A stretch of 33,027 nucleotides of DNA from a virus: the IMG/VR virus record IMGVR_UViG_3300025141_000419, positions 1-33,027 of that record; one strand, 5' to 3'. Below, one piece after another: positions 22-26,704 of this stretch. The translations under genes and the position numbers were made by a program. Every line of letters begins with the position of its first letter. Position 1 is the stretch's first letter. Below the pieces are notes generated by a model. It ran no database searches, was not told where the DNA came from, and saw nothing but the letters and a program-made list of their open reading frames with translations.

Positions 22-356
22 GCTTGAATCTCCACGGGATTTGCGTCAAGGTTATAGCTACGGTCTGCCATTCGATCCCAACTGATTTCGGACCACTCAT
101 TAAAAATCTTCCAAAGCTGCTCGCTCGTCATATCTTTCAGCTTCTCTTGGTCCCACTCAATCGCTTCGGTCTGATCGCCATCGGTTTCTGCATACGGGTT
201 ACAATCGTTCATAACTGACAAAGCGGTTTCGTCATCGTCAACACCCAAAAACTCTGTTATATCCGAAATGCACGCCAGCGCACAACCTTTCTGCGTCAAG
301 TGTACACTACTAAACAACTCGCCTTCGTAGCTTCCTTGCATGACCCAAACTTTCAT
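18..356 (-). CDS. small acidic phage protein of unknown function
   Basis: I do not recognise a functional family. The 112-residue product starts MKVWVMQGSYEGELFSS and is rich in Asp, Glu and Trp. It has no signal peptide or membrane segment. The N-terminal part has alternating hydrophobic residues, and the C-terminal half looks helical and acidic. Its ATG forms an ATGA overlap with the stop of the preceding 49-codon gene, so the two are probably translationally coupled and driven by the promoter at 525-553. The following gene, cut by the window edge, begins with similar residues. Confidence 0.75.
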   Translation of the reverse strand: MKVWVMQGSYEGELFSSVHLTQKGCALACISDITEFLGVDDDETALSVMNDCNPYAETDGDQTEAIEWDQEKLKDMTSEQLWKIFNEWSEISWDRMADRSYNLDANPVEIQA

Positions 357-502
357 CCTATCACCTCAAACGATGCCTTGTTTGCCCACATCTTATGGTT
401 TGTTTTTTGGCTGACCACCAGCACAGTATCAGCAATCTCAGCCAGAGCAAGCCATGTGCTATGGTTTCCCCACATTCTAAGTAACGATCCAACTTCGATC
501 AT
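353..502 (-). CDS. 49-residue unknown phage protein
   Basis: This is a short open frame with strong context. The ATG at 502 is preceded by AAAGGAGAG, the promoter at 525-553 lies just upstream, and the TGA overlaps the next start codon as ATGA. The product begins MIEVGSLLRMWGN and ends KASFEVIG. It is a mixed hydrophobic and charged small protein with two Trp residues in its first half and a third near the C-terminus, and no recognisable motif. The promoter, ribosome site and coupled stop together support a real gene, the first of its operon. Confidence 0.65.
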   Translation of the reverse strand: MIEVGSLLRMWGNHSTWLALAEIADTVLVVSQKTNHKMWANKASFEVIG

Positions 503-4252: not shown

Positions 4253-4494
4253 TGTATTTTCTTTTTACACTTCTGGCAACCAGCCTGGTAAAACTTTTTA
4301 CGCTCTGTTGTTTTCATGTGTATTTTCTTAAAGTTGGAGAGCTTATCTTCTAAATATTTTCCATCCATTAAGGCGCGTATGCACCCATTCTTAGCATTAT
4401 AAGAACCCACCAGCACTATTCTCTGGGTTGGCTCATAAAAAACATATTCCCCCGGATAAACAATCTTATCTGTGGTTATCTCTGAAAGTTCCAT
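4249..4494 (-). CDS. 81-residue basic protein with C-terminal CxxC
   Basis: The product begins MELSEITTDKIVYPGEYVFY, then RIVLVGSYNAKNGCIRALMDG, and ends with a very basic tail containing CQKCKKKIQ. The N-terminal part again has the G-E-Y-V ... V-L-V-G strand pattern of a tiny barrel, and the tail could bind nucleic acid. GGAGAAGAAA precedes the ATG at 4494. It overlaps the nucleotidyltransferase gene by 29 bases. The function is unknown. Confidence 0.7.
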   Translation of the reverse strand: MELSEITTDKIVYPGEYVFYEPTQRIVLVGSYNAKNGCIRALMDGKYLEDKLSNFKKIHMKTTERKKFYQAGCQKCKKKIQ

Positions 4495-5425
4495 TTTCTT
4501 CTCCGTTCATATTCATCAGCTGATCATAGGCTTGGGTTTTTAAATCTGACAGTACATCTAGCATGCCGTTTCTACGCAGTATTTTAAAGGCAATGTTTTC
4601 TACCGAAAACTCCTGCTTTTTGCTTTCCAAGCCTGCCCGACGTATATTTCTAATCTTCGTTTTGAGTCGTTCAATATTGCGGAGGGCTGCCTTATACTTT
4701 TTGGCTGTTACAAGGTTGGAAACAATGTTTATTTGAAACTCTAAATCGTCAGCCTTTCGACGGGCGGCACTAAAATTGATTTCGCTTTGATACGGTTTTG
4801 GTTTTTTAATCCATTCGCCATTTAAAATAGAATAAACCCCAGAAGATTTGTGAGTCTCCCGTGAATCTTCCACATAAATTTCTACGTCGTAACCTTTAAC
4901 TCTAATGTTGTGCTGATCATTCCATCGCATGCGGGCATTATCAAAAAAAGATTTTACCAACGCTCTATTTTCATCCACACTCAAGAAGTCTACGATAATA
5001 TGAAGATCCACATCTGAATAATTCGACCAGTTATAGTTGGCCAGAGACCCAGTTAAAGTTACGTCCTCTACGTTTATTTCCACTGGCAGCCCGTCAATAA
5101 AATCTTGAGCAATCTTCAGCAGCTTTTGTCGCACAATGGGTGTCAACTCATCATTTCTCCAGAGGCGAGGTTCTAATGATACATGTGTGTCAAAAGATTC
5201 GGGCTCCACTTCCTCTTCTAAGCCGCCGGGGGCGCCGGGGGGAGCCGAGACATCGTTAAACTTTTTGCCCTTGAAATTCGCTCTTTTATTTTTGTAGCCA
5301 CCTTTCTTTTGAGGGCCTGTGTCTAAATAATCTGCTATATCGCTGTCCAAACTCTTGATCCGATTGCGATAAGTTCCCACTTCTCTAATCGAATCTATAA
5401 AATCTCGCCAATTGGTTCCGTTCAT
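4466..5425 (-). CDS. nucleotidyltransferase-fold protein with capsid-targeting-like N-terminus
   Basis: The 319-residue product carries a clear polymerase-beta-type nucleotidyltransferase core: TGSLANYNWSNYSDVDLH with G126-S127 and the D138-x-D140 metal pair, and a third acidic position in GYDVEIYVED (about residues 179-187). A helical C-terminal domain (about 220-319) is Lys/Arg-rich. Similar genes occur in large T4-like phages, where the substrate is unknown; tRNA, protein or antibiotic-like targets are all possible. The first residues, MNGTNWRDFIDSIREVG, resemble the T4 capsid-targeting peptide, so the protein may be packaged. The start lacks a well-placed ribosome site and is preceded by CTATTTAATAGT. 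Confidence 0.82.
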   Translation of the reverse strand: MNGTNWRDFIDSIREVGTYRNRIKSLDSDIADYLDTGPQKKGGYKNKRANFKGKKFNDVSAPPGAPGGLEEEVEPESFDTHVSLEPRLWRNDELTPIVRQKLLKIAQDFIDGLPVEINVEDVTLTGSLANYNWSNYSDVDLHIIVDFLSVDENRALVKSFFDNARMRWNDQHNIRVKGYDVEIYVEDSRETHKSSGVYSILNGEWIKKPKPYQSEINFSAARRKADDLEFQINIVSNLVTAKKYKAALRNIERLKTKIRNIRRAGLESKKQEFSVENIAFKILRRNGMLDVLSDLKTQAYDQLMNMNGEENGTFRDNHR

Positions 5426-8091: not shown

Positions 8092-8880
8092 CTAATTAGG
8101 TTCAGTTATTACCCGGCTCCAATCGATTTTGTGTGCCGGTGCGACAAGGACGACATTTTGTAACACTTGGGGGCCAAATTCAGTTGCACCCACGTCAATA
8201 GCCACTACATATCCTATATAGCGACCCTTCGCATCAAAAACGCCAGACCCAGATGAGCCGCTCCATGCATACGAATTCATATATAAGTATTGGGTGCCCC
8301 CAAACCCTGCGATAGTGCCCTCAATGGTCAGCAGGCCGATCGTGTTCGGGTACCCGCTGTAAACTACTTTATTTAACACGGAGTAGGCGTACCGCCATTG
8401 CGTCTTTCGTGGGAGGTCGCGAGGAATCGAAATTGGCTCGCGGCCCGCAATTTGTTCGGTCTGTATGATGGCATAATCTAAATCAGGATCAATGGTAATA
8501 TATTTCAGACAAGGGTATACTTCCTCATTATGAACCAGCGTGGTGAAAGCACACGGGCCCTGAAGGCCATGCATAACAGTGACAACAAAATATTTGTCAT
8601 ACGCCTTAAAGTATGTGCCTGTTGCACTAGAAAAATATCCCGGCTCAGGGCCGAGCGAGACCACCTTTACGGCACTTTCTCGGGATTTTTTAATGGCCCT
8701 CTGGTAGGAAACAGGGTATATTTTAGAATAGTTTTTAGATTCCATCTCGCTAAACTCCGGCTCTGTTCCGGATAAAGTGGCACTATATACAGCGAACAAG
8801 GGCAAAAATACGATAATGGTGGCGGCCGCAAATAATTTAAGAAATCTAGCAATATAATATTTAAACTTTATCATTGTCAC
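8092..8880 (-). CDS. trypsin-like serine protease with N-terminal membrane anchor or signal
   Basis: The 262-residue product begins with a basic segment and a hydrophobic stretch (about residues 14-34, FLKLFAAATIIVFLPLF), then a linker and a chymotrypsin-fold domain. The likely triad is His104 (VVTVMHGL), Asp135 (DPDLDYAII) and Ser210 in WSGSSGSGV. C110 and C124 could form a disulfide. No PDZ domain is present, unlike DegP. It is probably exported or held in the host envelope; it may process virion or host proteins. The start is GTG at 8880 (GTGA overlap) or the ATG two codons later. Confidence 0.85.
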   Translation of the reverse strand: MTMIKFKYYIARFLKLFAAATIIVFLPLFAVYSATLSGTEPEFSEMESKNYSKIYPVSYQRAIKKSRESAVKVVSLGPEPGYFSSATGTYFKAYDKYFVVTVMHGLQGPCAFTTLVHNEEVYPCLKYITIDPDLDYAIIQTEQIAGREPISIPRDLPRKTQWRYAYSVLNKVVYSGYPNTIGLLTIEGTIAGFGGTQYLYMNSYAWSGSSGSGVFDAKGRYIGYVVAIDVGATEFGPQVLQNVVLVAPAHKIDWSRVITEPN

Positions 8881-11800
8881 ACCTGCCTCTGGTAACTAAA
8901 GAAGACAGGAAGCTCCTGCAGGCCCGCTTTTTTAGCAAACCATATCAAGTCTTCGTTTCCTGTGATCTTTACGCGTCGGTTTTGTCCCACGGCAACGTAC
9001 ACAGGCGCTTGGGCACCGTTCTTAATAAAGTTGCGATACATCCCATCAAATGCATCCATCGGGGCACGAAATTCTCGGCTGATGTATTCAAGCAACTCTT
9101 CCACCGGAACCATAACATGGTATGCCATGTTGGTCGTGTCCATGGGCACATCGTATATACGCACCGATCCGTCGGCCCAGTCTTCCACCACTTGATCGAT
9201 TGTTTGTCGGGGGGTCACCATTGGTCGCGATGGTTCGCGGATTGAGGCCGCGTTGCCGGCCATTCCTCCAAACCCTCCGAGGGTTCCACCTACATACTCT
9301 TTCAGGATCTTGGATTCTCGGACGGTTCGAATGGTACCCCGCGTATTAGTCCTGTGAATTGGGCTGATGCGCAGCACCCGAAGCCCCCTCACTTTAAGAA
9401 GTCCGGGAATCAAAATCCTGTCCCGATATTTTACGCGGCTGATAGAACCTAACAACTCAAATTTGACCTCGTACGTTCCCAACAGTGCTTGTGGGGTGTT
9501 TTGTGTATCTCCCACTGTGCGAACAGTGGTCACACCTTCGATTCCACGGATTTCAGTTTGTGTTTCCTGAACTTCTCCTCCGACATCCTTCTGGATAGAT
9601 ACATCTATTCTAATGCTATACAACCTCAAGTCATAATTTGGATCCTTCTCTTGTAAAAGCCTCTCAACCCTCTCAATCTGCTGTTCTACGCTCTCTCCCA
9701 CAGGCTGCGGCTCTCCAAGCGTACCCGCGAGTGGCTCTCCACGTTGAACGCCGCTATAATCGCGCACAGTGCCACCAAACGCCCCCAGCTTGTTGAGTTG
9801 GTCCTTGACATACTTCTCCCAAGTCGATGGCTTGCCAAGATTGTTGGTGTCATCCATCTCAATATTGGGAATGTCGCGGGCAAAATTGAGGCGCCTCGTT
9901 GCTAGCGGCAGGACATACTTATAGTAACCAACCCATTTCTCAACCTCACCCATGTTGCCCCAGTTATCTCTAATCCATTTTGCTGTCGCTACCGCCCTTT
10001 CTGCCCACACGTCCGAGCCAGAAGCGACCTGTGCTGCATACATACTGTCGATGCGCTGGATTGAAACCTCAAGACGCTTGCCCGAAAGAACCTCGTCTTT
10101 GTTTGCGTCTGCGAGTGCTTTGATGGTGGCAAATCTCGTGCCGATAACGTCTTTGGCTGCGTCTTCTATCATGTCAGGGTTGTCGTTAAAGTATTTAACC
10201 ATAGCCTTAACTGCTTCGATAGTCTCTTCTCCAGACCGAGCATCCACAAAAATCTCAAACTTCCAGTTAACTAGTTGAGTTCGATATCCACTACCTTTGA
10301 GGCTTGATTCGGCGTGGATAATAAAGCGAGAGTTTCCCTTCAGCACAGACAACCACGGAGGTCCTCGTCTCTGTTGTTTGTATTTGTCTCCCAGCGCAAG
10401 CTGCTGTTGTGCGCGGTCGGGCCCATCGTGAAACTCTGAGTAACGCTGCTTTAAAGCATATGCCATTTCCTGATTGAGTGTCGGGTTCTCGATGCGAGGT
10501 CTGTCGGCGGCGGCGCCTCCAATCGAAGGAGAGCCAAACATCTTGCTGTATAGCCCGTCGATCATCCCTTCTTGACCTTCATCGAACGCCCACATCTTAT
10601 ACTCATTTGGAATTGAGCCAAGTTCGCCGCCTAGGTTGTTGATGGCGCTGTGGTGGTTTTCGGAGAGCCTGAACCAAAACTCGACGGCGCTGCTGTTATC
10701 ATCATCGTATACATGCCAGTGTCGAAGATCGGTCTCTGTCAATTCGGTGCGCGTGCGATCATAGGCTGTCTTGGCTATGAACTCACCTTTCACCAGATTC
10801 CTGCGTACATTCTCTACGATCTCCGGGTAGTTATCTGCAAAGTTTTCTTTGACTTGCTCGGCAAACTGCTCAAACTCCCACTTGGCTTCGTCGGGATCGC
10901 TAGCTGCCTCTTGGTGAGTCATGCGAATCTCTATCTCAAGGTGTGCGGTTTTTGCTGGCTCGGGATCACCCAATTCCCAATTGGGATCGGCTCCCGTTAG
11001 CATTGTAACCTGCCACTCAGTCTCACCTTCGCCGGGCAGATCCCATTCGATGTTATCGATCTCAATCTCAGATGAGAAGTCTCGGGCTTCGCGACCCCAA
11101 GTGTTGCCGGGGATCGGATGGAAATTGTCGTCATAGTCGCCGGAGCCTGCTTCTACCGCAGGGTAAGAGTCGCCACCATCGCGCACTACAATGTCTGGCC
11201 ATCCCAAGTCAATCTGAAGATTGCAGTAGGCGTTCATATAGATATAGTGTCCTTCGCCGCCGTGTTCATCTGGACCCATCACTTGTGCATCAATGCTGGA
11301 GTTGTCGTCTTCATATTCGCTCGCCACTTCGTCCAATGCTTCTTGGATTGCTTGTTCGTCGACAACGCCCGTGAACGCAACGCTGGGGTTCTGGCGCTGG
11401 AGCCACTCAAGCATCTCTGCGAATTCTTCCGGGTTGCGTGAATGTTCGCCGTCTTCTTGGACATTCGTAACGCCCATATTGCTGATGAACCAACTGATAT
11501 GATCCCAGACTTCATCGGGAGGTGCTTCGTTGGAGCGCCCCTTGATTTGGTATAGGTTGTTGCCTCCGTATCCTTCGGCTTCCCAAGTCATCGTGACATA
11601 GGACGAGGATGCTTTGCGTTTGCCTTGGCGCTTGCGGAGCGACACCAGCACACCGCGAGAGTCTGACCCGCAGTGTCCCATTCGCTCGCCTTCGACATCA
11701 CAGTTAGACACGTTTAAGTTATACCAGTACGAGCCGTCATCGAATTCGTGGATAACATAGTCTGGGTCCTCGCGGTTCTCTAAATCTTGTTTGGCTGTGT

Positions 11801-12449
11801 TGTATGCTGAGTTGATATCGTCTTCGTTCTTAATCAATTCATAATTGGTGGGCTCGTCATTAAGCCAAGCAAACAACTCATTATACTGCGAGTACCACGA
11901 ACGAAACTCTTGCATCATATAGGTTTGCAACCACTCTTTTACTTTCTCAACCTTCTCCGATTCCACGCCGGCTTTGCTTAGGGCTTTCACAGCTTTCATA
12001 AATGACTTACGCCAGGTGCCGGCGGGCTTACCCCACGCTGCGTTTACATTCTGGACAACGAAGGCGATCTTCTTGTTCCGTTCGATCATTTCATCGTCGT
12101 ACGACTTGCGCTGCTGTGGTCCAACGTCGCGGTCAACGCGGTAGGGGGTGATTGTTCGGGCATCAACCTTAGTTGTTCCGTCGCTGTTGGTAGCTACTTG
12201 GATCTCGTCTTCAAAGTTTTCCTCCATGAAGCTGAACCACCGCTTTTTTAGGACATCGTGGGTGTATGCAGAGGGAAGTGTGTGGTCCTTCCACTGGTTG
12301 CCCGCGTACATCTTTGCCTTCTCGGGCGCGTTTGCCATCGCATTCTCAATAAAGTCGACAATCTTTTCGGGGAGACCTATATCTCTCAACCCTTCCGTTA
12401 AAACTTCTTCTCGAAGATACTCGAACCAATTTCCTGTAGAAATATCCAT
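8877..12449 (-). CDS. 1190-residue composite protein, PcfJ-like and ParB-like regions
   Basis: The largest gene here. It starts MDISTGNWFEYLREEVLTEG, similar to T4 capsid-targeting peptides. Residues about 230-325 include SNCDVEGERMGHCG, LVSLRKR, YVTMTWEAEG and LYQIKGRSNEAPP, the arrangement of PcfJ-like domains (EG-x-x-M-x-HC, SLR, QIKG-x-x-N). The last 70 residues (PVYVAVGQNRRVKITGNED, then ELPVFFSYQRQV) look like a ParB/sulfiredoxin-type fold. The middle is long, acidic and unrecognised. GGAG precedes the ATG. It may be packaged in the capsid and injected, but this rests only on the N-terminus. The function is unknown. Confidence 0.8.
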   Translation of the reverse strand: MDISTGNWFEYLREEVLTEGLRDIGLPEKIVDFIENAMANAPEKAKMYAGNQWKDHTLPSAYTHDVLKKRWFSFMEENFEDEIQVATNSDGTTKVDARTITPYRVDRDVGPQQRKSYDDEMIERNKKIAFVVQNVNAAWGKPAGTWRKSFMKAVKALSKAGVESEKVEKVKEWLQTYMMQEFRSWYSQYNELFAWLNDEPTNYELIKNEDDINSAYNTAKQDLENREDPDYVIHEFDDGSYWYNLNVSNCDVEGERMGHCGSDSRGVLVSLRKRQGKRKASSSYVTMTWEAEGYGGNNLYQIKGRSNEAPPDEVWDHISWFISNMGVTNVQEDGEHSRNPEEFAEMLEWLQRQNPSVAFTGVVDEQAIQEALDEVASEYEDDNSSIDAQVMGPDEHGGEGHYIYMNAYCNLQIDLGWPDIVVRDGGDSYPAVEAGSGDYDDNFHPIPGNTWGREARDFSSEIEIDNIEWDLPGEGETEWQVTMLTGADPNWELGDPEPAKTAHLEIEIRMTHQEAASDPDEAKWEFEQFAEQVKENFADNYPEIVENVRRNLVKGEFIAKTAYDRTRTELTETDLRHWHVYDDDNSSAVEFWFRLSENHHSAINNLGGELGSIPNEYKMWAFDEGQEGMIDGLYSKMFGSPSIGGAAADRPRIENPTLNQEMAYALKQRYSEFHDGPDRAQQQLALGDKYKQQRRGPPWLSVLKGNSRFIIHAESSLKGSGYRTQLVNWKFEIFVDARSGEETIEAVKAMVKYFNDNPDMIEDAAKDVIGTRFATIKALADANKDEVLSGKRLEVSIQRIDSMYAAQVASGSDVWAERAVATAKWIRDNWGNMGEVEKWVGYYKYVLPLATRRLNFARDIPNIEMDDTNNLGKPSTWEKYVKDQLNKLGAFGGTVRDYSGVQRGEPLAGTLGEPQPVGESVEQQIERVERLLQEKDPNYDLRLYSIRIDVSIQKDVGGEVQETQTEIRGIEGVTTVRTVGDTQNTPQALLGTYEVKFELLGSISRVKYRDRILIPGLLKVRGLRVLRISPIHRTNTRGTIRTVRESKILKEYVGGTLGGFGGMAGNAASIREPSRPMVTPRQTIDQVVEDWADGSVRIYDVPMDTTNMAYHVMVPVEELLEYISREFRAPMDAFDGMYRNFIKNGAQAPVYVAVGQNRRVKITGNEDLIWFAKKAGLQELPVFFSYQRQV

Positions 12450-12491
12450 TAATTAAACTCCATCATTATAATTAGTTGTTTTTATCAGTAT

Positions 12492-13250
12492 CTACGCAAA
12501 AGGCTCCGTCTTTAATAGTTCGGCGGTGTCCTGCCAGTTCTCAACTTCGTGTGTGGTGCCATTGGGGTGGGCGCTCAGCACTTGAGCTATAGTGTGGTCA
12601 TTTCCAGGAAACGGAATCCGGTCTCCCACAAAATGAATCTCATTGTCCTGCAGGGCCTCTCTAAAATACCTATCAATAATCTGTGATTTATCGTTCCCTC
12701 GATTAAATATATCAATGCTCACTGCGCCCCCTATTACAAACTCTAGCTCTGTATATTTTTGCGCAAGCGCTTTAACTATGCGCTTGCGCTCGTTGTGTTC
12801 TGCGTCGTAGCCCGCATAATTGGCGCGCTGGGCGGCAGAAGCGTTTCGGCCTACGATCGAAAAGTTTAACATGCCCGCGCGCTCTTCGAGATGGCGGCCT
12901 GTCTTGGTGTGATAGTTTGATTTTGCCACATATGCATTAAGAGAGCGCACTAAATTCCGGGGAGATATAAACTCGTTTTCATATAAAAGATCCCACTCGT
13001 TCATTCCAGAATAATTTACTTGATCGCGGCGCTGATAGAATGTATTGGCCATGCACGCGAACACCCCGTGGACTTCGTTCATAATGGGTATCCCCAATTG
13101 CTCTATTATTCTCACAAAAGAACCCCCCGACACGATATACACCTCTCTTGTCTTCATCCATTTTAAAAATGCCGTTGCAAAGGTCGGATCTATTTTAGCT
13201 TTGGGGGGAGTTAGTGTCCCATCCACATCAAACAAATAAACAGAAGACAT
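12492..13250 (-). CDS. phosphomannomutase-like HAD-family enzyme
   Basis: The 252-residue product has the length and motif order of eukaryote-type phosphomannomutase (HAD subfamily IIB): FDVDGTLTPPKAKID (nucleophile Asp8, Asp10), IVSGGSFVRI, EERAGMLNFSIVGRNAS (sugar-phosphate binding cap), VIGGAVSIDIFNRGNDKSQI, and HFVGDRIPFPGNDHTIAQ (metal-binding Asp). This enzyme normally interconverts mannose-6-phosphate and mannose-1-phosphate, the route to GDP-mannose. It may instead be a phosphatase. GGAGATAAAAA precedes the ATG. A possible use is in making or altering surface glycans. Confidence 0.85.
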   Translation of the reverse strand: MSSVYLFDVDGTLTPPKAKIDPTFATAFLKWMKTREVYIVSGGSFVRIIEQLGIPIMNEVHGVFACMANTFYQRRDQVNYSGMNEWDLLYENEFISPRNLVRSLNAYVAKSNYHTKTGRHLEERAGMLNFSIVGRNASAAQRANYAGYDAEHNERKRIVKALAQKYTELEFVIGGAVSIDIFNRGNDKSQIIDRYFREALQDNEIHFVGDRIPFPGNDHTIAQVLSAHPNGTTHEVENWQDTAELLKTEPFA

Positions 13251-24341: not shown

Positions 24342-24947
24342 TCACCCAAAATCGAAACTAACCTCTGTTCGTATTTTAAGCTCTGGTATTTGTGAATGGT
24401 TTGCCAAGTTGTGTTTTGACGCCTCTTTAAACTCCAAGAACCAATCGGCGTGACCCCTTTCGTGGATCAAATCAAGAAAATAATTTGGGCGGTGGCCACA
24501 ATTTTTAGCCATCATTTGGTAAACTTTTTTATTTAAGCGCTGTGTTTCTTCTGCGGATGCTTTTACTTCTTCTACTTTTCCCCAATTCATAGAGCTTACA
24601 TCGTGAATCATCAAAGTGGCATCCATATCCATATAGCGATATCCGGATGCGCCAAAACTAAAGAGGATGGCACCACAGGACATAGCCTTTCCTTGCACAA
24701 TGGTGGCTACCGGTATTTTAGAATGCTTGATGTCAGATATCATTGACATTAAACTATAAACTTGGCCACCGTAGCTGTCGATAATCACCGGCACAACGGG
24801 CTGGCCCGTGTTTTGGGCGCGCATCATCAAAGTAGCAAATTCTTTTGCCGCCACCTCATCAAATTTCCTTACCCTGATCACAATTGGCAAATCATCAATA
24901 AGCTTTGGCTCTTTTAGGAGGGGGCTAAATTCTTTAATTATGTTCAT
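24342..24947 (-). CDS. ClpP-like serine protease, second paralogue
   Basis: The 201-residue product has VIIDSYGGQVYSLMSMISDI, nucleophile Ser90 in VQGKAMSCGAILFSFGASGY, and His115 in DATLMIHDVSS, the ClpP order. The C-terminal DLIHERGHADWFLEFKEASK includes Asp168, but the normal third residue is not obvious; Glu163 is another candidate. It is clearly diverged from the paralogue at 18365. It could form a mixed or separate protease chamber with host unfoldases or process the capsid. The ATG has a GGAG site and overlaps the upstream stop as ATGA. Confidence 0.85.
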   Translation of the reverse strand: MNIIKEFSPLLKEPKLIDDLPIVIRVRKFDEVAAKEFATLMMRAQNTGQPVVPVIIDSYGGQVYSLMSMISDIKHSKIPVATIVQGKAMSCGAILFSFGASGYRYMDMDATLMIHDVSSMNWGKVEEVKASAEETQRLNKKVYQMMAKNCGHRPNYFLDLIHERGHADWFLEFKEASKHNLANHSQIPELKIRTEVSFDFG

Positions 24948-26185
24948 GTTTTATCTCCTTTTAATCTCTTCATAAGTTGTTGCTTTTGTTCTGTTGGTAT
25001 TTTGTTCAATTTGTCCTTTACCACTGCGCGCAACGCATCCTCTCTCTTGGAAGGAGAAAGGGCGTTTAATTTTGTCCCCTTTATTTCAACGAGAATTACA
25101 TTATGTTGGTGACATTGAAATCTTTTGAAGTGATCTCGCCGGCGTTGCTTGATTAAGCCCACTTGGCCCCCGAATTGCTCAGGTGGTCTCTGGTAGTGCA
25201 GCCATCCCTGATACTCGAAGGCTAATTGCAATTTGTCATTGTAGCAATCTAATTCCAATCTGTGGTTGGTGTTGGGGTTTACCAGCCATTTTGGTCTAAC
25301 ATTTGGAAACTTGAAGTTTCCATGTTTAGAAAAGATTTCTTCTAAAATCTTTCGTAAAAGTTCTTCCGATTTGCTTATGCGTGGTGAGCACCTGGGACAG
25401 CCGCTCCCCCACAGATGATTATCCGCTATTTGTTCAAATTCGCCATGTTTTTTGCAGACAATCTTTACCTTGCTTTTCCCGAGGGTATATTCTACTTTTG
25501 AATAATCATATAAGTTCCCGTGAGTCTCTATGGCTCCTTCAATAAACTCATTGGTTGTCTTTCTCCGCCGGTGTCCATTGTCTTCCCACGCACAAAAGCG
25601 ACAGCCGCTAGCTCGCTTGGACAAATGGTTGGTGGGCAGCTGTTCAAATTCTCCATGCTCTGGGCATATTATGGTAAGGTTCTTTAAAGATCCTTTATAT
25701 TCAGCCTTTGAGTAGTCGTATCTATCTCCGTGGATCTCTCTCGCTCTTGTGATGAAGCCCTCTAAGGTTTCTCTTTTTCTTTCAAAATGACACTCTCGGC
25801 AGCCGGCCCTTTGTCGGGTGTGGGTGTCGGGTGCTTGGGTAAATTCGCCGTGGACGGGACAACCAATTATAACCTTGGTATAGGAATTAACATAATTTAC
25901 CTTTGAATAATCGTATTTATTTTCATGAATCTTTTGAGATCTCAAAATAAACTGTTCTTCTGTCTGCCTATTGACCCCCCACGAACATTTTAAGCAGCCG
26001 GCACCCTTTGAGGAACCCCCGCTAAGATGGTTATTAGGAGTTTGCTCAAAGTCTCCGTGAACTGGGCAAACTATAATAACTTTTTTATGTCCAGAAATAT
26101 ATTTTACTTTGGAATAATCATAGGTGTCGCCATGGCGAGCGCGGGCTTGAGCAACAAATTCTTCAATAGTTTTTCGACGACTCAA
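24944..26185 (-). CDS. zinc-ribbon-repeat endonuclease, probable homing endonuclease
   Basis: The 413-residue product has four tandem repeats of about 65 residues (roughly 5-70, 73-136, 139-204, 209-268). Each reads F-I-x-x-A ... H-G-x-x-Y-D-Y-S-K-V-x-Y, I-I-x-C-P-x-H-G-E-F-x-Q, H, G-C-x-x-C. A nuclease-like domain follows, with HRLELDCYNDKLQLAFEYQG (about 308-327), WLHYQ and VILVEIKGTKL, a PD-(D/E)XK/Vsr-like arrangement. The repeats are suited to sequence-specific DNA recognition. The start is TTG at 26185, with GGGAGAG upstream. It sits tandem with an HNH gene between clpP-like and polymerase genes, the usual position of an invader. Confidence 0.85.
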   Translation of the reverse strand: MSRRKTIEEFVAQARARHGDTYDYSKVKYISGHKKVIIVCPVHGDFEQTPNNHLSGGSSKGAGCLKCSWGVNRQTEEQFILRSQKIHENKYDYSKVNYVNSYTKVIIGCPVHGEFTQAPDTHTRQRAGCRECHFERKRETLEGFITRAREIHGDRYDYSKAEYKGSLKNLTIICPEHGEFEQLPTNHLSKRASGCRFCAWEDNGHRRRKTTNEFIEGAIETHGNLYDYSKVEYTLGKSKVKIVCKKHGEFEQIADNHLWGSGCPRCSPRISKSEELLRKILEEIFSKHGNFKFPNVRPKWLVNPNTNHRLELDCYNDKLQLAFEYQGWLHYQRPPEQFGGQVGLIKQRRRDHFKRFQCHQHNVILVEIKGTKLNALSPSKREDALRAVVKDKLNKIPTEQKQQLMKRLKGDKT

Positions 26186-26704
26186 TTACTCTCCCGGGGG
26201 AGCCGTGGGGGCGAATTCCCTAAAAAGCTCCTCTTCTTTCTTTTTTCTAACTTCGTGGGCCTCTTCTGCTGTTTTGTAGTGGCCCAGAGAATAGACTTCA
26301 TAGTCCTTCTGTATTTTGGTGCTGTACGGGTTTCGCTTGCTGTCGCCGGTTTTATAAACCCCTTTATATCCGGTTGAATTCTGTCGGGTTTTTACGCGAT
26401 TCATCATGTTTTGGGATCGCGTCACGATTCGAAGATTGTCTCTTCTGTTGTCTAAGCCGTTGCGGTTGTGGTGGTCGACCACATACCCTTGAGGTAGGGG
26501 CCCCATGAGTTCGTTGTGCATTAGCACGGGACTTGGGCGTCTTGCGCCCTTAATCCGAGGCAGGTTTCGCTTGACATAAGCCGTGTTCGAGCGCATATCA
26601 ATATACCAATTATATGGCTCAATCTTTTCCACATCGGCATCATCATATAACACGACATGCCTTCCGTATTTTGGACTTTCGATGATCAGTTCTTTTGTTG
26701 CCAT
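26186..26704 (-). CDS. HNH homing endonuclease with AP2-like C-terminus
   Basis: The 172-residue product has an N-terminal strand-rich part (IIESPKYGRHVVLYDDADVE), an HNH core (residues 62-98: VLMHNELMGPL, GYVVDHHNRNGLDNRRDNL, RIVTRSQN) and a C-terminal AP2-like DNA-binding segment (STGYKGVYKTGDSKRNPYST, then SLGHYKTAEEAHEVR). This is the classic free-standing phage HNH plus AP2 layout. No intron is visible in the flanking genes. It lies between the polymerase gene (stop at 26708) and the repeat-type endonuclease, with a Pro-rich C-terminal tail. Confidence 0.92.
   Translation of the reverse strand: MATKELIIESPKYGRHVVLYDDADVEKIEPYNWYIDMRSNTAYVKRNLPRIKGARRPSPVLMHNELMGPLPQGYVVDHHNRNGLDNRRDNLRIVTRSQNMMNRVKTRQNSTGYKGVYKTGDSKRNPYSTKIQKDYEVYSLGHYKTAEEAHEVRKKKEEELFREFAPTAPPGE

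What the first reader, a model, noticed from the sequence alone, without database searches (positions are those of the whole stretch)
8877..12449. 1190-residue composite protein: PcfJ-like centre, ParB-like end, capsid-targeting-like start
It combines a MGHCG ... SLR ... QIKG-x-x-N region at about 230-325 (as in PcfJ-like domains, otherwise known from conjugation elements), a ParB/sulfiredoxin-like C-terminal 70 residues, and over 700 unassigned residues. It is the largest gene in the window and has no assigned role. A packaged effector acting on host DNA or translation would fit.
Basis: inference. Interest (0 to 1): 0.72.

Follow-up and report, generated by a model that had tools for sequence, protein, structure and literature searches.

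The report
Phage head-cargo protein, PcfJ- and ParB-like
This is a large protein of uncultured T4-like phages that carries the signals of a protein packed inside the virus head, trimmed there by the head protease and probably injected into the host, and its main part is a swappable, enzyme-like domain related to PcfJ of conjugative plasmids.

Summary
The gene (minus strand, 1190 aa) has a capsid-targeting-like leader, a PcfJ-like domain and a ParB/sulfiredoxin-fold C-terminus. I also found a ferredoxin-like domain before that C-terminus.

Over 50 distinct relatives occur in uncultured contigs of up to 203 kb. The contigs carry T4-type capsid protein and S77 prohead protease. All 53 complete leaders end in [LI]xE|G/A, the T4-type cleavage motif. 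61 of 62 upstream regions carry ACTATTTA, a motif that also precedes tail-sheath, tail-tube, baseplate and head-core genes. The disordered linkers around the ferredoxin-like domain also keep [LI]xE sites.

At the same syntenic locus the body is present, replaced by an unrelated domain, or absent; leader, ferredoxin-like and ParB-like parts remain. The PcfJ-like domain recurs in larger phage contigs (to 500 kb), usually behind a short [LI]xE leader.

Best reading: a late, head-packaged internal protein, cleaved by the prohead protease and ejected, in the manner of T4 Alt and internal proteins. Enzyme activity and target are unknown. The ParB pocket has no GxHR/GERR-type arginine, so a ParB-type nuclease is unlikely. 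No virion proteomics exists, so packaging is inferred. New variant of a known kind.

The parts
8877..12449 (-). whole gene, 1190 aa
   Evidence: full-length orthologues in IMG/VR
12469..12476 (-). late-promoter-like motif ACTAATTA, one mismatch from the ACTATTTA found at -25 to -38 in 61 of 62 distinct upstream regions
12393..12449 (-). residues 1-19: capsid-targeting-type leader, STGNWFEYLREEVLTE, with predicted prohead-protease cut after E19
   Evidence: 53 of 53 N-complete members end in [LI]xE followed by G or A
11850..12368 (-). residues 28-200: conserved helical region (GTWRKxFMKAVKALSKAG)
11445..11771 (-). residues 227-335: PcfJ-like domain, most conserved part of the body
9762..11393 (-). 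residues 353-896: body domains of unassigned fold, variable
9630..9761 (-). residues 897-940: disordered linker with [LI]xE site (LQE934)
   Evidence: 47 of 50 members keep [LI]xE here, shuffled mean 25.6, max 34
9348..9629 (-). residues 941-1034: ferredoxin-like domain (TEIRGIEGVTTV)
   Evidence: AF2 beta-alpha-beta-beta-alpha-beta; Foldseek to SSo6206, S6, PII
9201..9344 (-). residues 1036-1083: disordered Gly-rich linker with [LI]xE site (LKE1051)
   Evidence: 41 of 50 members keep [LI]xE, shuffled mean 8.8, max 17
8880..9200 (-). residues 1084-1190: ParB/sulfiredoxin-fold domain without the GxHR/GERR arginine (TGNED instead)
8092..8880 (-). conserved downstream neighbour, trypsin-like peptidase with hydrophobic N-terminus
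   Evidence: Pfam Trypsin_2 E 1e-7; same neighbour in all three architectures

Best explanation
The gene encodes a late, head-packaged internal protein of a T4-like phage lineage. Its N-terminal leader (targeting box STxxWFxxL, then [LI]xE) takes it into the prohead core. The phage's gp21/S77-type protease then cuts the leader off after E19, and probably also cuts in the disordered linkers near E934 and E1051. That would leave a large body with a PcfJ-like enzyme-type domain, plus ferredoxin-like and ParB-fold pieces, inside the head. On infection they are ejected with the DNA, as T4 Alt and the internal proteins are, and the body acts on the new host. The body is exchangeable cargo; leader, ferredoxin-like and ParB-fold parts are the conserved chassis. 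Shown by sequence: architecture, leader and motif conservation, protease and capsid genes in the same contigs, shared promoter motif, body swapping at one locus, PcfJ homology. Inferred: packaging, cleavage, ejection, catalysis. Not known: substrate.
For: Leader: 53 of 53 N-complete members end in [LI]xE|G/A although leader length and sequence vary. The type II and III variants also carry [LI]xE leaders. 38 distinct PcfJ-like proteins outside the full-length architecture have [LI]xE within residues 6-28 in 33 cases, against 76 of 245 background genes (p 6e-11; not corrected for relatedness; one of the 38, L253, is an N-terminal fragment of the main family, leaving 32 of 37). Phage type: Gp23 capsid protein in 17 of 20 contigs and S77 protease in 14 of 20; S77 above cut-off in 13 of 19 further contigs, most carrying the PcfJ-like domain. 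Other leader-bearing genes: 8 against 0.4 expected in one genome, 7 against 0.84 in another. Promoter: 61 of 62 distinct upstream regions against 0 of 127 control segments; the same motif precedes genes identified by sequence as tail sheath, tail tube, baseplate wedge and head core. Linker sites. Body swapped or lost at one syntenic locus. PcfJ homology. T4 precedent: CTS residues 8 and 10 govern processing and Alt is processed at both ends (PMC9026906); gp21 trims IPI-III and Alt (PMC9958956).
Against: No virion proteomics exists for any member and the phages are uncultured. A leader motif alone does not prove packaging. The statistics are not corrected for relatedness. Nine of 50 fd-C linkers lack a strict [LI]xE, and conserved folded segments elsewhere can also carry it (window 330-374: 43 of 50). 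The gene lies some 50 kb from the head genes in the two large contigs read.
Confidence: 0.7

Rival explanations
1. It is an internal head protein with an architectural job (core, DNA packing, or a conduit for ejection) rather than an effector acting on the host.
For: Same leader, promoter and head context would be expected; stand-alone leader + ferredoxin-like + ParB-fold proteins persist without any body.
Against: Invariant polar residues of the PcfJ-like domain look catalytic; the body is swapped for unrelated domains or absent, unlike a structural part; PcfJ relatives sit on conjugative plasmids.
Confidence: 0.2
2. It is a late cytoplasmic protein that is not packaged; the [LI]xE leader is coincidental or serves another interaction.
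For: Packaging is not directly shown; other proteins in the same genomes have [LI]xE near the start by chance (31% of background genes).
Against: 53 of 53 conservation of the motif with variable surroundings and the same pattern in stand-alone variants.
Confidence: 0.07
3. It is a ParB-type DNA-binding nuclease or partition protein; the other domains are accessory.
For: ParB/Srx fold predicted.
Against: No GxHR/GERR arginine at the pocket; T, G, E and D of TGNED conserved in 48-50 of 50 members; no ParA or partition context was seen in the neighbourhoods read.
Confidence: 0.03

Closest known systems
T4 internal head proteins and Alt (CTS-bearing, gp21-processed, ejected)
   Same: Short N-terminal leader with aromatic/hydrophobic targeting box and [LI]xE cut site, S77 protease and Gp23 capsid in the same contigs, cargo variable behind a conserved leader; Alt is also processed at its C-terminus (PMC9026906, PMC9958956)
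   Different: Much larger, several predicted cut sites, no sequence relation to Alt or the IPs found, PcfJ-like body instead of ADP-ribosyltransferase, conserved ferredoxin-like + ParB-fold module
PcfJ family (Pfam PF14284; pCF10 and many Gram-positive phages)
   Same: HC, R, T and Q..G..N motifs align in order; profile match P about 1e-8
   Different: Below the Pfam curated cut-off; the PcfJ N-terminal region was not found; embedded in a head-targeted protein; PcfJ function itself unknown
Polyvalent proteins of phages and conjugative elements (Iyer et al. 2017, PMC5512222)
   Same: Large multidomain proteins predicted to enter the cell with the DNA, include ParB-fold domains, domains shared between phages and conjugative elements
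   Different: No zincin-like metallopeptidase identified; maturation would be by the phage prohead protease; ParB-fold domain lacks the conserved arginine of the DdrB-like type
Salicola phage SCTP-2 gp31 (735 aa, hypothetical)
   Same: PcfJ-like domain, E 4e-5; leader-like start with LFE; S77 protease in the genome
   Different: No ferredoxin-like + ParB-fold module by sequence

Membership tests
T4-type CTS-bearing internal head protein | N-terminal leader ending in a gp21-type [LI]xE site | tested here: met
   53 of 53 N-complete members
T4-type CTS-bearing internal head protein | encoded with a gp21/S77-type prohead protease and Gp23-type capsid | tested here: met
   relatives' contigs: 14 of 20 and 17 of 20; the 33-kb window itself holds neither, being a fragment
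T4-type CTS-bearing internal head protein | late expression with virion genes | tested here: inconclusive
   shared ACTATTTA motif with virion genes; that it is a late promoter is inferred, no expression data
T4-type CTS-bearing internal head protein | found in virions, cleaved, and ejected | not testable with these tools
   no isolate, no proteomics
PcfJ (PF14284) | core motifs HC...R...T...Q..G..N in order with profile-level similarity | tested here: met
   the E of PcfJ's T.E is mostly not E in the phage family
PcfJ (PF14284) | score above Pfam curated cut-off | tested here: not met
   best 15.7 bits against 25, so filed as PcfJ-like, not as PcfJ
ParB/sulfiredoxin superfamily, DdrB-like or ParB nuclease | fold | tested here: met
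   (Foldseek probability about 1, E 0.1-0.35)
ParB/sulfiredoxin superfamily, DdrB-like or ParB nuclease | conserved active-site arginine (GxHR/GERR) | tested here: not met
   TGNED in its place; read from the sequence, not from a structural superposition
Polyvalent protein | several disparate domains in one polypeptide, domain exchange between relatives | tested here: met
Polyvalent protein | zincin-like metallopeptidase for self-processing | tested here: not met
   no such Pfam hit in the members scanned; a common but not obligatory feature

The most novel reading that the evidence does not exclude
The protein is a head polyprotein: the phage prohead protease cuts it at three places (E19, near E934, near E1051), delivering an exchangeable enzyme body, a ferredoxin-like protein and a ParB-fold protein into the virion. 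The PcfJ-like body is an injected host-modifying enzyme of a new class whose plasmid counterpart, PcfJ, acts in the same way at cell entry.
Probability: 0.3. Interest if true: 0.8.

Novelty: new variant of a known kind. Interest (0 to 1): 0.62.

Why it matters
It suggests a way to find phage-injected effectors by sequence alone (targeting box + [LI]xE leader + late-type promoter motif) in a lineage with no cultured member. It offers a testable role for the PcfJ family, known so far as an uncharacterised domain of conjugative plasmids and phages. It also shows one genomic locus where a conserved chassis carries different cargo domains, which points to diversifying host-takeover or counter-defence functions.

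Tried and rejected
Pfam, PHROGs, PDB-sequence and PADLOC searches of the whole protein gave nothing significant. NCBIfam was not completed because the alignment exceeded the size limit.

tblastn of the full protein in cultured phages found nothing; only the SCTP-2 gp31 domain hit stood up. The canonical T4 late promoter TATAAATA is not enriched upstream (0 exact matches in 65, fewer than shuffles); the conserved motif is ACTATTTA instead.

A relation between the type II replacement domain (SRHPxDVLRMSD...SCHS) and the PcfJ-like domain was tested and not found (hhalign probability 0.5). Foldseek of the PcfJ-like domain model gave mostly HAT1 and MYST acetyltransferases, but at E 0.03 or worse, TM at most 0.46, and with no bacterial GNAT among the top 50; I treat it as a lead only.

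Search for a second fd+C protein in the same genomes: single copy in the contigs searched, apart from one weak hit (E 1e-5) in G020. One scan of bacterial genomes found a single relative, in Aureimonas, so the domain is essentially phage-borne at the sensitivity of that scan.

A virion-proteomics paper on SCTP-2 was sought; the titles returned by the search showed none.

Full report
WHAT IS THERE. The finding is one gene on the minus strand, 8877-12449, ATG at 12449, 1190 aa. The window is a 33,027-bp IMG/VR fragment of a phage genome. Its neighbours include GroEL, a PMM/HAD-type phosphatase and a trypsin-like peptidase and, by eye, PolIII alpha, IMPDH and two ClpP-like proteins. The whole protein has no significant hit in Pfam, PHROGs, PDB or PADLOC and none in cultured phages.

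RELATIVES. IMG/VR holds six full-length relatives found by direct search (41-86% identity). A profile of the PcfJ-like domain found 80 loci, and a 55-sequence alignment could be built. Contigs reach 203 kb. Nearest cultured capsid relatives are the Flavobacterium phage immuto group, Microcystis phage Mel-JY01 and Rhodothermus phage RM378, at 43-52% identity over about 55% of the query, so this is a deep T4-like lineage without isolates.

ANATOMY. AlphaFold2 on the alignment gives mean pLDDT 77, with disordered linkers near 899-939 and 1037-1080. Residues 941-1028 form a beta-alpha-beta-beta-alpha-beta domain matched by ferredoxin-like structures (SSo6206, S6, PII). Residues 1112-1187 form a ParB/sulfiredoxin fold matched by PadC, sulfiredoxin and Noc. 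Foldseek probabilities are about 1 for the better matches but E-values are only 0.015-0.35, so these are fold assignments, not homology claims. The PcfJ-like region is the most conserved of the body, with E253, H259, C260, S270, R272, T286, Q301, K303 and N307 invariant in 55 of 55.

PcfJ RELATION. hhalign against the C-terminal domain of pCF10 PcfJ and 11 relatives gives P 8e-7 with the family alone and P 1e-8 with a broader set. The best column-shuffled controls score 17.3 and 19.1 against 45 and 56.6, and other regions of the protein do not match. Pfam's PcfJ model hits the same ORF in 5 of 21 contigs but below its cut-off. I therefore call it PcfJ-like.

LEADER AND PROTEASE. All 53 N-complete members end the leader with [LI]xE followed by G or A, with leaders of different length and sequence. 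In T4 the capsid targeting sequence works the same way: residues 4 and 7 target, residues 8 and 10 direct processing, and gp21 trims the internal proteins and Alt (PMC9026906; PMC9958956). That gp21 prefers L or I at the third position before the cut is established knowledge of T4 that I did not re-derive. The contigs carry Gp23-type capsid protein (17 of 20) and S77 prohead protease (14 of 20). The capsid proteins of two contigs have several [LI]xE sites in their N-terminal regions. Other genes in the same genomes have a comparable leader, 8 against 0.4 expected and 7 against 0.84.

PROMOTER. ACTATTTA lies 25-38 bases upstream of the start in 61 of 62 distinct upstream regions, and in 0 of 127 control segments. 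In two genomes the motif sits near gene starts far more than expected (10 of 15, 17 of 29), including genes I identify from sequence as tail sheath, tail tube, baseplate wedge and the head-core gene next to the capsid gene. The window's own copy has one mismatch. That this is a late promoter is inferred.

MODULAR LOCUS. The same genomic slot, next to the trypsin-like peptidase gene and, in most loci, a small membrane-protein gene, holds three forms. Type I has the PcfJ-like body. Type II keeps the middle, ferredoxin-like and ParB-fold parts but has an unrelated N-terminal domain (SRHPxDVLRMSD...SCHS). Type III is leader + ferredoxin-like + ParB-fold only, 259-262 aa. One member carries two PcfJ-like domains in tandem (L239). 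All forms keep an [LI]xE leader. The linker between the ferredoxin-like and ParB-fold domains is poorly conserved, yet 41 of 50 members keep [LI]xE (shuffles 8.8, max 17) and 10 of 10 type II and III proteins do; the linker before it keeps it in 47 of 50 (shuffles 25.6, max 34). This suggests additional protease sites, but it is indirect, and one folded control window (330-374) scores as high.

WIDER SPREAD. The PcfJ-like domain occurs in many larger phage contigs, up to 500 kb, mostly in 250-1200 aa proteins without the C-terminal module. 33 of 38 distinct ones have [LI]xE in residues 6-28, against 31% of background genes; one of these, L253, is an N-terminal fragment of the main family, so the strict figure is 32 of 37. 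13 of 19 further contigs tested, most carrying this domain, have the S77 protease above cut-off. These proteins are related, so the p-value overstates independence.

MECHANISM AND LIMITS. The evidence fits a late head-packaged protein that is cut by the prohead protease and ejected. Packaging, cleavage, ejection and catalysis are inferred. The ParB-fold domain has no GxHR/GERR-type arginine, so a ParB-type nuclease is unlikely; that the ferredoxin-like + ParB-fold module persists alone with a leader suggests it has a head function of its own. The acetyltransferase-like Foldseek hits for the PcfJ-like model are too weak to use.

Noticed in passing
window 4466-5425, and homologues in G002 186404-187333 and G006 46986-47906: Conserved neighbour with weak nucleotidyltransferase similarity (Pfam E 0.006), its own WRDF...IRE/IHE/IDE leader and, in the window copy, an ACTATTTA motif: a second candidate head cargo protein.
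   Followed up: partly
contig G002 14503-19481 (L148): Cluster of four genes starting MKLLFENWRKF[IL]xE or close variants, two of which look by eye like a J-domain protein and a HAD-like protein: more candidate head cargo.
   Followed up: no
L196, whole locus: An ORF of at least 2723 aa with two PcfJ-like domains and, near its start, a ParB-like stretch that keeps a canonical GNHRY motif.
   Followed up: no
L269, L270, L272, L273, L275, L287: Type II proteins share an undescribed domain SRHPxDVLRMSD...SCHxE...CAxxESxGxGxxAYxV with invariant Cys/His; no Pfam, PHROGs or cultured-phage match in the members tested.
   Followed up: partly
window 12492-13250: The PMM/HAD-type phosphatase gene sits directly upstream in type I loci but gave no match in the type II and III loci compared.
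   Followed up: no
window 24944-26704: A protein with repeated HGxxYDYSKVxYxxxxxKVxIxCPxHGxFxQ units beside an HNH/AP2-like protein, by eye; possibly a mobile endonuclease element.
   Followed up: no
BFVD entries A0A516MAR6, A0A516LC34, A0A516LC28: Unnamed viral proteins whose predicted structures resemble this model (E 6e-10 to 6e-5) without detectable sequence match in the phage collection.
   Followed up: no
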